Assembly: GCF_013407765.1 (NCBI RefSeq)
Contig: NZ_JACBZD010000002.1
Location: 754,001-818,000, forward strand
From: Allostreptomyces psammosilenae
Lineage (GTDB): Bacteria; Actinomycetota; Actinomycetes; Streptomycetales; Streptomycetaceae
Length of the DNA stretch: 64,000 nt
Reading direction: 5' to 3'
The notes beneath the pieces are model-generated. The model was not told where the DNA came from. It saw only the letters and a program-made list of their open reading frames with translations, and did not search any database. A program made the translations under genes and the position numbers. Positions 13,757 to 57,225 of the stretch are shown one piece after another (the stretch's first letter is position 1; every line of letters begins with the position of its first letter).

Positions 13757-13862
13757 GTCATGTCCCACCCCAGAGTTGTCCACAGGCCGGAAGCGGGGGG
13801 CTGCGGTGCGTGATCAACTCATGAAATCCTTGAAACAAGGGGGTCCCCCTTCGGGGCCCCTA
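13757..13862 (+). repeat. Single diverged copy of the DnaA-box repeat family
   Basis: Contains GAGTTGTCCACAG (box TTGTCCACA at 13776-13784), GGGGGGCTGCG at 13795-13805, and an AAGGGGGTCCCCCTT palindrome at 13837-13851 preceded by ATCCTTGAAAC. The same three modules in the same order and with similar spacing make up the three tandem units at 37643-38112, read there on the opposite strand. Confidence 0.7.
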
Positions 13863-37616: not shown

Positions 37617-37642
37617 GTGGGGCCGCGGGGCGGGGTTCCCGC

Positions 37643-38112
37643 CTGGCGTCAGGATCATGCCAGGTGATGTCGCCTGATCAACCACTCGCCCTGGGGGGAC
37701 CCCCTTCTTCAGGATCCCACGCGGCTGTAGCCGTGCGCAGCCCCCCATGTGCTGTCTGTGGACAACTCGTGGCGGGTGCATGACCTCCCCTGGTGTCGCT
37801 CGCTGGCGTCAGGGGCATGCCAGAGGTTGTTGTCTGACCAACCGCTTGTTCTGGGGGGACCCCCTTCTTCAGGATCCCACGCGGCTGTAACCGTGCGCAG
37901 CCCCCCATGTGCTATCTGTGGATAACTCCTGGCGGGTGCATGATCTCCCCTGGACCCCTCACTGGCGTCAGGATCATGCCAGGTGATGCCGCCTGATCAA
38001 CCACTCGCTCTGGGGGGACCCCCTTCTTCAGGATCCCATGGGGTTGTGACCCCGCGCAGCCCCCATGTGCCCTCTGTGGATAACTCCTGGCAGGTGCATG
38101 ACGTTGCTCGCC
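37643..38112 (-). repeat. 160-bp tandem repeat with DnaA boxes, three units
   Basis: Three head-to-tail units begin at 37643, 37803 and 37962 (160 and 159 bases apart), each starting CTGGCGTCAGG. Each unit carries a GGGGGGACCCCC palindrome, a CGCAGCCCCC module, and on the minus strand a DnaA box: TTGTCCACA at 37757-37765, TTATCCACA at 37917-37925 and TTATCCACA at 38075-38083. Minus-strand peptides around GILKKGVPP recur, but the unit length breaks any common frame, so I treat the array as non-coding. The rest of the 769-base gene-free stretch 37492-38260 is simple repeats. Confidence 0.9.
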
Positions 38113-39474: not shown

Positions 39475-39549
39475 GGGCCCGTACCCCAGCTGGCTAGAGG
39501 GCTTCGGTTTAGGTCCGAAGTGTCGTGGGTTCGAGTCCCACCGGGCCTA
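39475..39549 (+). tRNA. tRNA with UAG anticodon (Leu codon CUA), short variable loop
   Basis: A complete cloverleaf can be drawn: acceptor GGGCCCG/CGGGCCT, D arm with three pairs and G18G19, anticodon stem TTCGG/CCGAA, T arm GTGGG-TTCGAGT-CCCAC, discriminator A. The loop TTTAGGT gives anticodon UAG at 39510-39512, reading CUA (Leu). The variable loop is only five bases (GTGTC), whereas leucine tRNAs have a long variable arm. CCA is not encoded. It is either a divergent tRNA or a tRNA-like element; the amino acid is uncertain. Confidence 0.8.
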
Positions 39550-43784: not shown

Positions 43785-43866
43785 GCCTTTGCCAAACCGT
43801 GAGGGGTTGGGCATAGTCGGAAATGGCGCCCCGGCCGTGCCGTCCCCCGGCGGGTCGGCGGTGGCG

Positions 43867-43910
43867 CCCCCGACGAGACGCGCCGTACCGGGCCAGCAAA
43901 GACGACGCAC
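43867..43910 (+). promoter_or_regulatory. Guanidine-III riboswitch (ykkC-III)
   Basis: The element reads CCCGACGAG, then ACGCGCCGTACCGGG, then CCAGCAAAGACGACGC. It closely follows the Thermobifida-type guanidine-III aptamer as I recall it: a P1 stem (CCCG/CGGG), the ACGAG segment, and a GCGCCGT strand that pairs with the 3' ACGACGC to make the pseudoknot, with one C-A mismatch here. It lies 40 bases before a Gdx-type exporter gene, the expected target. The 3' pseudoknot strand is 29 bases from the ribosome site, so control of translation start is plausible. Confidence 0.8.
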
Positions 43911-43949
43911 CCCCGTGAAGAGAGCCATTCAATCCTCGGAGGTGCCGTG

Positions 43950-54600: not shown

Positions 54601-54906
54601 TCAGTCGCCGTCGCCGACGAGGTCGGTGAGGCCTCCGTTCAGCAGGTCGTTGAGCCCGCCGACCAGGTCGAAGTGGAAGCCACCGACGTCGTTGGTGTAC
54701 GAGGTGGTGCTGTTGGTGTTGTGCGTCTCGGTCTGGTTGATGTTGTGGGTTTCGTTGGGGGCGGTGTCGGTGCGCTCCTGGGCCACGGCGGGAGTCGTCC
54801 ATCCGAGCACCGCGACCATCATCGGCACGGTGGCCGCGGCGACGATCGCGTCGCGGGTGATGACGCGCTGTCCGATGTGGTGCGCCCGGTCGACGTGGCG
54901 GAACAT
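54601..54906 (-). CDS. Asn/Thr-rich small secreted protein
   Basis: A 101-residue exported protein. ATG 54906 follows GGAGG closely. The hydrophobic stretch AIVAAATVPMMVAVLGWTTPAVA is a signal peptide with cleavage after AVA. The mature 60 residues contain an Asn/Thr-rich run (ETHNINQTETHNTNSTTSYTN) with a THN repeat, which stands out in this Ala/Arg-rich proteome, then DLVGGLNDLLNGGLTDLVGDGD with an LxxLLNGGLTDL repeat. The composition recalls surface-active or amyloid-forming small proteins of aerial hyphae, but there is no chaplin or rodlin motif. Unknown family. Confidence 0.68.
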   Translation of the reverse strand: MFRHVDRAHHIGQRVITRDAIVAAATVPMMVAVLGWTTPAVAQERTDTAPNETHNINQTETHNTNSTTSYTNDVGGFHFDLVGGLNDLLNGGLTDLVGDGD

Positions 54907-55050
54907 GGGGCCTCCAAGGGTTATGGCGGGACCTTCCCGCAGGAAGAACCTCGGGCGTTGGTACACATGGCTCAATGCGTCCGGGCCGATTCCATCCGAT
55001 TGGCTCGCGCCCGTCCGAGTGGTTCCCGGGTTCTCGGCGGCCGGCGTGCG

Positions 55051-55240
55051 GCGAGGGGGTTTCGCCAGCTCATGGCCGCGTCGGGTGAGGGGCGGGGTTT
55101 TCCGTGGCCGGTGTGGTCCGAGGGGGTTCCGTCAGCTCCGTGCCATCCCCGTCCGAGAGGGTTTCGCCAGCTCCTCGCCATCCGGCCCGAGGGCCCGGGC
55201 TTCGCCGCCACGGCCCGAGGGCGGGGTTTTCCACAGGAGG
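55051..55240 (+). repeat. Degenerate GGGTTTCGCCAGCTC repeats
   Basis: Six degenerate copies of a GAGGGGGTTTCGCCAGCTC-like unit every 28-40 bases (near 55058, 55097, 55123, 55158, 55198 and 55225), running into the DnaA-box array. Together with that array they fill the 879-base gap 54907-55785, in which no gene is supported. Confidence 0.6.
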
Positions 55241-55620
55241 CGTGAGTGCCTTTGCCTGCGTGCCCGTCACTCTGCTATCCCCATGAACAAGGGGGGTTTG
55301 AGTTATCCACAGGGAGAGGGTTCCCCCTTGTGGCCGGCCGCCCTTTCCGGATACTCCTGGGAAACAAGGGGGGCCTGGGTTATCCACAGGGGTTGGCTCC
55401 CTCTTGCGTCCGTGGGCTTTTTGGGATACCCCTGGGAAACAAAGGGGGCCTGGGTTATCCACAGGGGCGGGTTCCCTCTTGTGGCGGTGGGCTTTTTGGG
55501 ATACCTCTGGGAAACAGGGGGGCGTGGGTTGTCCACAGGCTGAACGAATCCCCTTGCATCCCCTCCGGCTCTCTTGCTAAGCCTGGAGAAAAAAGGGGGG
55601 CGTGAGTTTTCCACAGGGGG
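55221..55620 (+). repeat. 76-bp repeat array with six DnaA-box-like motifs
   Basis: Units of about 76 bases built from GGGAAACAAGGGGGGC, a box and a CCCTCTTG/GGGCTTTTTGGG module. Boxes on the + strand: TTTTCCACA 55227-55235, TTATCCACA 55303-55311, TTATCCACA 55380-55388, TTATCCACA 55455-55463, TTGTCCACA 55529-55537, TTTTCCACA 55607-55615. Box spacing is 76, 77, 75, 74 and 78 bases. Units 2-4 are the best conserved. The GAAACAAGGGGG module is shared with the 13.8-kb copy. Confidence 0.9.
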
Positions 55621-55785
55621 ACGCGGGGGCTGGTGGGCCGGCCTGTTTCGTGCGATCCTGTGGCGCGCAAAGTTGTTGGTGGTCAGTCATGCGCCTCCCC
55701 CGCCGCGGCATCGCGGAGAGTTCGTCTGGTGGTTCCCGGGCGGACCGGTCGACGTCACCCCCGCAGCACCGCCGTGGGAGACACC

Positions 55786-57225
55786 GTGGGCATGGACACG
55801 CTGACCCGTCCGGCCGAGGGCACCCGTGCCCCCGCCCGCGAGGAGGCCGGGCCGCGCGATGGAGGACTCTCCGTCGCGTCGCGGAGACCTCCGGAGCCGA
55901 CCCCCGCCCACACCGCCCTCGCGACCGCCACCCACACCCCCCACACCGCCCTCGCGACCGCCACCCACACCCCCCACACCGCCCTCGCGACCGCCACCCA
56001 CGCCACGCCCGCCACGCGCCCCACCACAACCCCCCACCCGGCGGGCGGGATGTCCCCGAACGGCGCCGCCCCGCCGCCCACCCCGCCGCCCACCCCCACC
56101 CGGCCGCTGCGCGTCGCGGTGGTCGCCGAATCGTTCCTCCCCAGCGTCAACGGCGTCGTCAACTCGGTCTGCCGCAGCGTGGACCACCTGGTGGCCTCCG
56201 GCCACGACGTGGTGATCGTCGCCCCCGGACCCGGCCCCTCCCACTACCGGGGCGTGCCCGTGCTGCGGGTGCACAGCCTCCCGGTGCCCTTCTACCGCTC
56301 CTTCCCGGTCGGCCTCCCCGTCGGCCGCCCGCTGCGCCGCCTGCTGCGCGGCTGGGCGCCGGACGTCCTCCACGTCGCCTCGCCCGCCGTGCTCGGCGGC
56401 ACGGCGCTGCGCGTCGCGCACCGCCTCGGAGTCCCCTCGGTCGCGGTCTTCCAGACGGACCTGGCGGGCTTCGCCCGCCGCTACCGGCTGGGCGGCGGCA
56501 CCCGGCTGATCTGGCGGCGGCTGCGCCGCATGCACGGCAGGGCGACCCGCACCCTGGTGCCGTCCACCGACACCCTGCGCGCCCTGCGGGAGCAGCGGCT
56601 GCCCCGGCTGGAGCTGTGGCGGCGCGGCGTGGACGCCCAACGCTTCCACCCGAGCCACCGTTCCTCCACGCTGCGCCGCGCGCTGGCCCCCGGCGGCGAG
56701 GTGCTGGTGGGGTACGTGGGACGGCTGAGCAGCGACAAGCGGGTGCACCTGCTCGCCCCGCTGACGGAGCTTCCCGGCGTGCGGGTGGTGGTCGTGGGCG
56801 ACGGCCCGGCGCGGGCCAGGTTGGAGCGCCTGATGCCGCGCGCGGTCTTCCTCGGCCTCCTCCAGGGGGAGGAGCTCTCGCGGGCCTACGCCTCCCTGGA
56901 CGTCTTCGTGCACACCGGGGCGGACGAGACGTTCTGCCAGGCCGTGCAGGAGGCCATGGCCTCCGGAGTGCCGGTGGTGGCCCCCGCCTCGGGTGGTCCG
57001 CTGGACCTGGTGGACGACGGCCGTACCGGTCTGCTCTACCCGCCGGACGACGCCGCGGCGCTGCTCGCGGCGGTGCACCGGCTCACCCGCTCCCGGGCCA
57101 CCCGGCGGGCGATGGGCGACTGGGGCCGGCGCGCCGTGCGGGAGCGCACCTGGACGGCGGTCGGCCGGCAGCTGGAGCAGCACTACCGGGAGGTGCTGGC
57201 GCAGGCCGCCGCCGGGCCCGGCTGA
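55786..57225 (+). CDS. MgtA-like GT4 mannosyltransferase
   Basis: A 479-residue retaining GT4 glycosyltransferase. The first 100 residues are a disordered Pro/Thr/His-rich extension with an 11-residue repeat. The catalytic part starts VAVVAESFLPSVNGVVNSV (with the GVV loop binding the sugar nucleotide), then YVGRLSSDKRVHLL, VGDGPARARLE, and the E-x7-E motif ETFCQAVQE. The pattern fits GDP-mannose-dependent alpha-mannosyltransferases such as mycobacterial MgtA, which acts on glycolipids or phosphatidylinositol mannoside-like acceptors. GTG 55786 has GGGAG at five bases; ATG 55792 is an alternative. It lies directly after the DnaA-box repeat array and is monocistronic. Confidence 0.85.
   Translation: MGMDTLTRPAEGTRAPAREEAGPRDGGLSVASRRPPEPTPAHTALATATHTPHTALATATHTPHTALATATHATPATRPTTTPHPAGGMSPNGAAPPPTPPPTPTRPLRVAVVAESFLPSVNGVVNSVCRSVDHLVASGHDVVIVAPGPGPSHYRGVPVLRVHSLPVPFYRSFPVGLPVGRPLRRLLRGWAPDVLHVASPAVLGGTALRVAHRLGVPSVAVFQTDLAGFARRYRLGGGTRLIWRRLRRMHGRATRTLVPSTDTLRALREQRLPRLELWRRGVDAQRFHPSHRSSTLRRALAPGGEVLVGYVGRLSSDKRVHLLAPLTELPGVRVVVVGDGPARARLERLMPRAVFLGLLQGEELSRAYASLDVFVHTGADETFCQAVQEAMASGVPVVAPASGGPLDLVDDGRTGLLYPPDDAAALLAAVHRLTRSRATRRAMGDWGRRAVRERTWTAVGRQLEQHYREVLAQAAAGPG
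55909..56007 (+). repeat. 33-bp coding repeat in the mannosyltransferase N-terminus
   Basis: Three 33-base units encoding HTALATATHTP twice and HTALATATHAT once, inside the disordered N-terminal extension. Confidence 0.85.

What the first reader, a model, noticed from the sequence alone, without database searches (positions are those of the whole stretch)
55221..55620. 76-bp array with six DnaA-box-like motifs
Six boxes with 74-78-base spacing, three of them exact TTATCCACA, form a second array unlike the first in unit length but sharing the GAAACAAGGGGG and TTRTCCACAG modules. Regular spacing of about seven helical turns would place all boxes on one face of the DNA. No dnaA or dnaN is nearby, so it is not the normal oriC.
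Basis: partly seen in the sequence, partly recalled or inferred. Interest (0 to 1): 0.72.

Follow-up and report, generated by a model that had tools for sequence, protein, structure and literature searches.

The report
Genome-wide dispersed DnaA-box repeat family
The six regularly spaced replication-initiator (DnaA) binding motifs are real, but they are one of dozens of similar intergenic arrays scattered through this bacterium's genome, probably spread-out DnaA binding sites derived from a promoter rather than a second replication origin.

Summary
The array is real: six TTNTCCACA boxes at window 55227-55615, spacing 76, 77, 75, 74, 78. It belongs to a lineage-restricted, dispersed, intergenic repeat family. 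The 12-mer GTTATCCACAGG occurs 157 times in this genome and at most 27 times in any of 598 other genomes sampled from its class. The 19% of the genome that I read holds 39 such ~77-bp arrays (class B) and 123 related class A units. In units found without using the box, TCCACA is unchanged in 24 of 24 class A units from unselected stretches, and changed once in 79 class B units (8 from unselected stretches). Each unit keeps the box at a fixed distance upstream of a promoter-like -35 / ~18 bp / -10. Clusters are about 2.5 times denser within 400 kb of oriC. oriC itself is elsewhere, and the boxes do not share one DNA face. Most likely: amplified, promoter-derived DnaA-binding sites that titrate DnaA; DnaA binding is inferred, not shown. 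The same box spacing stands at comEA, comF-like, ssb and Ssd/CpaE genes of this genome.

The parts
55221..55620 (+). class B tandem array, six boxes, five box-to-box units of 74-78 bp
55227..55235 (+). box 1 TTTTCCACA
55303..55311 (+). box 2 TTATCCACA
55380..55388 (+). box 3 TTATCCACA
55455..55463 (+). box 4 TTATCCACA
55529..55537 (+). box 5 TTGTCCACA
55607..55615 (+). box 6 TTTTCCACA; this last unit continues with a class A-like -10
55328..55357 (+). unit 2: -35-like TTGTGG (55328-55333), 18 bp, TACTCC (55352-55357)
   Evidence: read by eye; geometry as
55404..55432 (+). unit 3: TTGCGT (55404-55409), 17 bp, TACCCC (55427-55432)
   Evidence: read by eye; geometry as
55479..55507 (+). unit 4: TTGTGG (55479-55484), 17 bp, TACCTC (55502-55507)
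   Evidence: read by eye
55651..55659 (+). extended -10-like TGCGATCCT of the last unit (TG..A...T 44 bp after the start of box 6)
55792..57225 (+). glycosyltransferase gene downstream of the array (ATG start assumed)
   Evidence: PF13439 6.5e-28, PF00534 5.9e-24
54601..54906 (-). small predicted gene on the other side, no Pfam match (divergent pair)
37643..38102 (-). first array: three class A units of ~160 bp, boxes at 37757, 37917, 38075
13776..13784 (+). single class A unit, box TTGTCCACA

Best explanation
The array is a local tandem expansion of a ~77-bp unit from a genome-wide family of intergenic DnaA-binding elements. Shown: dispersal, restriction to this genome among those searched, conservation of the box, fixed spacing to promoter-like -35/-10 modules, intergenic location, modest enrichment around oriC, tandem growth inside arrays. 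Inferred: the family arose when a promoter with an upstream DnaA box (a promoter type still present in this genome at comEA and other genes) was copied and amplified; the units bind DnaA, and the >150 strong sites, many near oriC and so duplicated early, act as a distributed DnaA sink that buffers initiation. Whether the promoter part still fires, and whether DnaA regulates it, is open.
For: GTTATCCACAGG 157 times (79 + / 78 -), reversed control 0. Units found by flanks alone: in unselected stretches 24 of 24 class A hits carry the box (13 perfect to TTATCCACAGG, 8 with one, 3 with two changes), departures only at box position 3 (7) and the trailing GG (7); 79 class B hits: position 1 10, position 2 3, position 3 29, TCCACA 1 of 474 cells. 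Cluster density within 400 kb of oriC 31.2 against 12.6 per Mb, 25 of 71 clusters, p = 4e-4 (200 kb: p = 1.4e-3; 600 kb: p = 3.8e-3); unselected stretches: 15 clusters in 400 kb near oriC, 9 in 464 kb elsewhere including this window. Of 232 units none lies wholly inside a predicted gene, 3 touch one. oriC boxes of this genome share the core; G follows in 6 of 7, GG in 3 of 7, G precedes in 4 of 7. Class B units 78% alike within arrays, 66% between. In E. coli, boxes accumulate near oriC and the chromosome titrates DnaA (PMC12371093, abstract and one section read).
Against: No binding data. A pure sink would not need the fixed -35/-10 geometry. The flanks G-box-GG are stronger in the units than at oriC, and 9 of 79 class B boxes begin with A instead of T, which the Streptomyces DnaA-box consensus as I recall it does not allow; another protein with a similar site is possible. 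One of 105 flank-only class A hits has no box. The class B count rests mostly on stretches picked for boxes (8 of 79 hits unselected). oriC enrichment is moderate, window widths were chosen after seeing the list, and this array lies on the other contig, whose distance to oriC is unknown. Only 100 of the 157 sites were placed. E. coli boxes favour the lagging strand; here there is no polarity about oriC (left 27 + / 24 -, right 24 + / 25 -).
Confidence: 0.45

Rival explanations
1. The units are regulated promoters: DnaA (or another activator) bound about 57 bp upstream of the start switches on short non-coding or antisense transcripts, mostly from class A units.
For: 85 units chosen by box and G-run only, with no demand on the -10: T, G, A, T of an extended -10 (-15, -14, -11, -7) kept at 99, 100, 100, 99% while the bases between vary at 65-87% (the 121-unit alignment agrees, but its model was trained on sequences picked for TG..A). 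-35-like (C/T)TG(C/T)(G/C) recognised together with the -10 in 82 of 121, spacer 18 in 64 of these. G run begins after a gap of 6-8 bases from -7 in 110 cases. In unselected stretches the extended -10 is at +44 to +47 in 20 of 37 non-B 12-mers (R = A or G) and nowhere else within +20 to +69. Five gene promoters of this genome have NANNNT at +48 or +49 too: comEA, comF-like, Ssd/CpaE, ssb, C1:3169201.
Against: T at -12 is nearly absent (1% of 85); class B lacks T at -7. Class A clusters point at a same-strand downstream gene in 32 cases and not in 50. No excess RNA structure in the A1 insert (mean z +0.39, 28 sequences); arm swaps show no covariation within subfamilies.
Confidence: 0.25
2. A selfish or passive dispersed repeat (minisatellite or short mobile element) without host function; the box is kept because the spreading machinery needs it.
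For: Dispersed, lineage-specific, tandem growth; avoids genes and divergent promoters (class A 8 of 85, class B 2 of 33 divergent; convergent 24 of 85 and 13 of 33; intergenic bp of the same stretches 29% divergent, 18% convergent).
Against: No Y1 (REP-type) transposase match in the genome (other transposases not searched); no match in plasmids (one class B query) or phages (one class A query); a passive repeat does not explain the selection at box and -10 positions.
Confidence: 0.2
3. The 12-mer is the site of an unknown activator of DNA-uptake and recombination genes, not of DnaA; the arrays are decoys or part of its network, or even uptake signals.
For: In three relatives 12-mers sit upstream of recA, a RecQ-like helicase, comF-like, Ssd/CpaE and prepilin peptidase; in this genome at comEA, comF-like, Ssd/CpaE and ssb. 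In 46 relatives' sites TANNNT occurs 16 times within +12 to +119, all at +36 to +52.
Against: Core and most of the degeneracy are those of DnaA boxes; the motif also stands in multi-box clusters and at oriC. Other relatives' sites stand before unrelated genes.
Confidence: 0.2
4. The array is a replication origin of contig C2 or an ectopic origin.
For: Six boxes; weak GC-skew sign change (+0.033 / -0.044).
Against: At least 39 arrays of this class in the part read; oriC with dnaA and seven boxes is at C1 about 2.888 Mb; lowest 50-mer nearby 52% GC, at oriC 46%; the skew change is within the window's noise.
Confidence: 0.03

Closest known systems
datA and chromosomal DnaA titration sites of E. 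coli
   Same: clustered DnaA boxes outside oriC; boxes enriched near oriC
   Different: here a repeated family of units, each with one box and promoter-like modules, in tens of arrays; no IHF-type site was looked for
Streptomyces DnaA-box clusters (Smulczyk-Krawczyszyn et al. 2006, recalled, paper not seen)
   Same: extra-oriC DnaA-box clusters in the same bacterial family
   Different: those are few, unique clusters (recalled); this is a repeat family whose class A pattern is absent from 244 order relatives
MIRU and other bacterial minisatellites (recalled)
   Same: dispersed intergenic tandem units of ~50-100 bp
   Different: I recall no DnaA boxes with promoter spacing in MIRUs; not compared by sequence
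REP/REPIN elements (PMC8049555, search listing only)
   Same: intergenic sequence population within one lineage
   Different: no Y1 transposase match in the genome
PafBC-type and DnaA-regulated promoters (PMC10693628 passages; PMC8203912 listing)
   Same: regulator site at fixed place upstream of the start, at recA and repair genes
   Different: here amplified and mostly not in front of genes

Membership tests
DnaA titration locus | multiple DnaA boxes outside oriC | tested here: met
   (by sequence)
DnaA titration locus | enrichment near oriC | tested here: met
   for the family on C1 0-4.45 Mb; not for this array itself
DnaA titration locus | binds DnaA and lowers free DnaA in vivo | not testable with these tools
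   needs ChIP, gel shift, deletion
Replication origin | next to dnaA | tested here: not met
Replication origin | AT-rich unwinding stretch | tested here: inconclusive
   lowest 50-mer 52% GC here, 46% at oriC
Replication origin | GC-skew switch | tested here: inconclusive
sigma70-type promoter | extended -10 with A-11 and T-7, 16-19 bp spacer (class A) | tested here: met
sigma70-type promoter | T at -12 (class A) | tested here: not met
   1% T
sigma70-type promoter | T at -7 (class B) | tested here: not met
   TACCCC type
sigma70-type promoter | transcription starts there | not testable with these tools
   no RNA data
REP/REPIN with RAYT | Y1 transposase in genome | tested here: not met
Structured RNA gene | covarying or unusually stable fold | tested here: not met
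   (class A1 insert and two hairpins only); Rfam at gathering scores finds only a tRNA and a guanidine-III riboswitch in the window
MIRU-like minisatellite | intergenic tandem units at many loci | tested here: met
MIRU-like minisatellite | sequence kinship with MIRU | not tested

The most novel reading that the evidence does not exclude
In Streptomycetaceae the 12-mer GTTATCCACAGG is the switch of a promoter class for recombination and DNA-uptake genes (recA, RecQ-like, comEA, comF, ssb, Ssd/CpaE, prepilin peptidase), read by DnaA, so that the replication initiator controls competence; in this lineage one such promoter was amplified over a hundredfold into a genome-wide DnaA sink.
Probability: 0.2. 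Interest if true: 0.85.

Novelty: new variant of a known kind. Interest (0 to 1): 0.58.

Why it matters
If DnaA binds these units, this genome is a natural experiment in DnaA titration with many times the strong sites of its relatives, and arrays can be added or removed to test titration models. The shared promoter motif also gives a concrete candidate for the unknown control of competence in actinobacteria: the Micrococcus luteus study PMC12849477 (abstract and passages seen) says that the upstream signals or regulatory cascade remain to be identified.

Tried and rejected
Rejected: structured RNA downstream of the class A start. By eye several hairpins seemed to covary; folding 28 inserts against shuffles gave mean z +0.39, and arm swaps within subfamilies gave nothing (the pooled hairpin-2 test was significant, 0 of 300, but subfamilies differ from each other there). 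The very low column-shuffle energies reflect base order, not covariation. Not supported: strand polarity about oriC, spread by a Y1 transposase, plasmid or phage kinship (one query each), viral contigs (no match). The genome-contig scan gave three single hits in unrelated MAGs, taken as chance. My regular expression for class A failed (7 hits); its class A counts were replaced by the profile search. That profile was trained on sequences picked with a pattern demanding TG..A with G or A at -12, so I repeated the -10 count on units picked without it; the result stood. A literature search for the 11-mer TTATCCACAGG gave 18 papers; by title the bacterial ones are on E. coli, Caulobacter and Cyanothece replication and on Deinococcus G-quadruplexes (listing; of these only passages of PMC11317965 were seen).

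Full report
Observation. The six boxes lie at 55227, 55303, 55380, 55455, 55529 and 55607, spacing 76, 77, 75, 74, 78. TTRTCCACA is found 9 times in the window against 0.07 expected. The array lies between a small minus-strand gene (54601-54906, no Pfam match) and a plus-strand glycosyltransferase gene (from about 55792).

One of many. The window is part of a 6.65-Mb genome in two contigs (C1 5.42 Mb, C2 1.23 Mb; window C2 754001-818000). GGTTATCCACAGG with up to one mismatch gives 212 places against 4 for the reversed pattern; the exact 12-mer GTTATCCACAGG gives 157 against 0. The 244 other genomes of the order sample have 2 to 24, and of the class sample of 394 no other genome has more than 27; 103 of 394 have none (together 598 other genomes). 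A 204-bp piece of the array has 30 matches at E up to 0.001 in its own genome. The class A pattern (box, gap, GGGATCCTGAA) has 55 matches here and none in 244 order relatives, three stray hits in unrelated MAGs (own genome left out there) and none in viral contigs. The genus has only this genome in the held set. The class B unit itself was searched in its own genome, and among plasmids only, not in the relatives.

Anatomy. I read 112 stretches, 1.277 Mb. Of these 864 kb were taken without regard to boxes (400 kb around oriC, twenty 20-kb samples, and this window); the rest were picked because they hold the motif or match the array, so totals are not densities. Profile models from 91 class A and 44 class B sequences, picked with patterns, find 123 A and 109 B units in 123 clusters; 29 A and 15 B units, and 5 of the 39 arrays, lie in the unselected stretches. 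The 39 class B arrays have 2 to 6 boxes and 67 complete units of 73-80 bp, consensus GTT.TCCACAGg - CCC.CTTGcgc - TAcCCCtgg - gAccA.GGGG. Arrays tend to stop after CTTGCG: the last box is followed by the CTTG module in 34 of 39 and by the TA-CCC..GGGG module in 1 of 39; the first box is preceded by that module in 11 of 39. Class A is mostly single (60 of 86 clusters), otherwise in uneven tandem units of 101-380 bp. The window's last unit, and those at C1 2615580 and 2958452, switch to a class A-like -10. Units in one array are 78% alike, between arrays 66%; 37 of 55 units have their best match in their own array.

The box is under selection. With models that leave the box out, 24 of 24 class A hits in unselected stretches have a box; departures from GTTATCCACAGG are at box position 3 (7) and the trailing GG (7) only. 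Over all 105 class A hits one has no box. In 79 class B hits, 8 of them unselected, departures are at positions 1 (10, nine of them T to A), 2 (3), 3 (29), the G before (5), the GG after (21), and in TCCACA once; in the 8 unselected ones they are at position 3 (3), the G before (1) and the last G (4). The stretches and training sets were chosen through the box, which limits the class B figure. Tolerance at positions 2 and 3 with a fixed TCCACA is what I recall for DnaA boxes of Streptomyces; A at position 1 is not part of that consensus as I recall it. In unselected stretches 1 of 64 TTRTCCACA sites lies in a predicted gene; of 232 units none is wholly inside one and 3 touch one. Gene prediction was home-made.

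Promoter-like geometry. In the alignment of 121 class A units the bases T, G, A, T at positions 46, 47, 50, 54 after the box start are kept at 96, 98, 100 and 99%, those between at 66-89%. Because the model behind that set was trained with a pattern demanding TG..A, I repeated it on 85 units chosen by box and G-run only: 99, 100, 100, 99%, others 65-87%, T at -12 1%. In unselected stretches, 20 of 37 non-B GTTRTCCACAGG sites have TG..A...T at +44 to +47, none elsewhere in +20 to +69, 17 have none. A -35-like element was recognised together with the -10 in 82 of 121, with an 18-bp spacer in 64. In class B, TTG(C/T) follows the box at +23 to +26 in 100 of 104 and TA at +47 to +50 in 69 of 104, spacer 18 in 58 of 68. 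The box centre is near -57. Against a plain promoter: T-12 is almost absent in class A, T-7 is missing in class B. Class A clusters face a same-strand gene in 32 and do not in 50 (24 codirectional same, 8 divergent; 26 codirectional opposite, 24 convergent; 3 mixed-strand clusters, 1 edge case and 2 mixed A/B clusters left out). RNA structure tests were negative.

Position. Of 71 clusters on C1 up to 4.45 Mb (from the 100 listed of 157 sites), 25 lie within 400 kb of oriC, 12.8 expected, p = 4e-4; within 200 kb 15, 6.4 expected, p = 1.4e-3; within 600 kb 30, 19.1 expected, p = 3.8e-3. oriC, between dnaA and dnaN, is at C1 about 2.888 Mb. C2 has no known distance to it. There is no strand polarity about oriC. 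The window array is not phased on one face.

What the motif does elsewhere. I read 46 sites of the 12-mer in five relatives (G054, G087, G199, G227, G017), chosen because their places happened to be listed. TANNNT occurs 16 times within +12 to +119, all at +36 to +52, nine at +36 to +38 (binomial p 1.5e-7 for +34 to +40, a range chosen after reading some sites); in the opposite direction 14, scattered over 9-63. The 16 include recA (L184, L213), prepilin peptidase (L185), M55 peptidase (L208, L182) and a MatE gene with a multi-box cluster (L189). No TANNNT was found at the RecQ-like (L214), ComF-like (L193, below the model's cut-off), Ssd/CpaE (L216) and DUF4192 (L183) sites, although a box stands shortly before the gene. 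Other sites stand before unrelated genes (paaA-like L190 and L211, MerR-like L201, by reading) or before nothing clear. In this genome I looked at 14 single sites. Five stand before genes with NANNNT at +48 or +49, the class A place: comEA (SLBB and HHH_3 above Pfam cut-offs; TIGR01259 E 2e-21 but below its cut-off) with TAGCGT and an ATG at +60; ComF-like (E 6e-7, below cut-off); Ssd/CpaE (TIGR03815 E 3e-104); ssb (PF00436 E 1.5e-17); and an unnamed protein at C1:3169201. In the relatives the commonest -10 place (+36 to +38) is about one helical turn nearer.

Interpretation. DnaA binding with titration is the reading that uses the box conservation, the number of sites and the oriC bias; a 2025 E. 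coli study reports that boxes accumulate near oriC and that the chromosome titrates DnaA (PMC12371093, abstract and one section read). The fixed promoter geometry says that the unit descends from, or still is, a promoter with this box, like those at the uptake genes. I cannot tell these apart from sequence. A second origin is unlikely. Literature: searches for the 11-mer, Streptomyces competence motifs, DnaA regulation, competence in actinobacteria, WYL regulators and DnaA-box clusters in Streptomyces showed, in their listings and the passages read, no description of this repeat or of this promoter class; many subscription papers are not in that library.

Noticed in passing
C1:4396628 (L134), 3776216 (L123), 3150147 (L079), C2:1016000 (L101), own genome; L184, L213, L185 in relatives: GTTATCCACAGG stands 48-49 bp before a NANNNT at comEA, comF-like, Ssd/CpaE and ssb of this genome, and at +37 to +52 before TANNNT at prepilin peptidase and recA of relatives; it also stands shortly before RecQ-like, comF-like and Ssd/CpaE genes of relatives (L214, L193, L216) without a TANNNT. 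A possible recombination/DNA-uptake promoter class in Streptomycetaceae.
   Followed up: partly
L189, L196, L198, L202 and C1:2932005: Several DnaA-like boxes stand upstream of a MATE gene (MatE by Pfam in L189, by reading in the others) in four relatives and in this genome.
   Followed up: partly
window 55907-56001: 2.9 copies of a 33-bp repeat, 100% matches, just inside the start of the glycosyltransferase gene downstream of the array.
   Followed up: no
window 55028-55232: A second, degenerate set of 14-44-bp repeats (GAGGGGGTTTCGCCAGCTC type) directly upstream of the array.
   Followed up: no
window 43852-43911: Guanidine-III riboswitch (44 bits); a tRNA lies at 39475-39549.
   Followed up: no
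class A1 units, e.g. window 37640-38100 minus strand: A further block TGGCATG..CCTG follows the GGGGGTCCCCC palindrome at a nearly fixed 29-31 bp with variable sequence between (28 cases, found with a pattern allowing 20-45); it looks like another protein site.
   Followed up: partly
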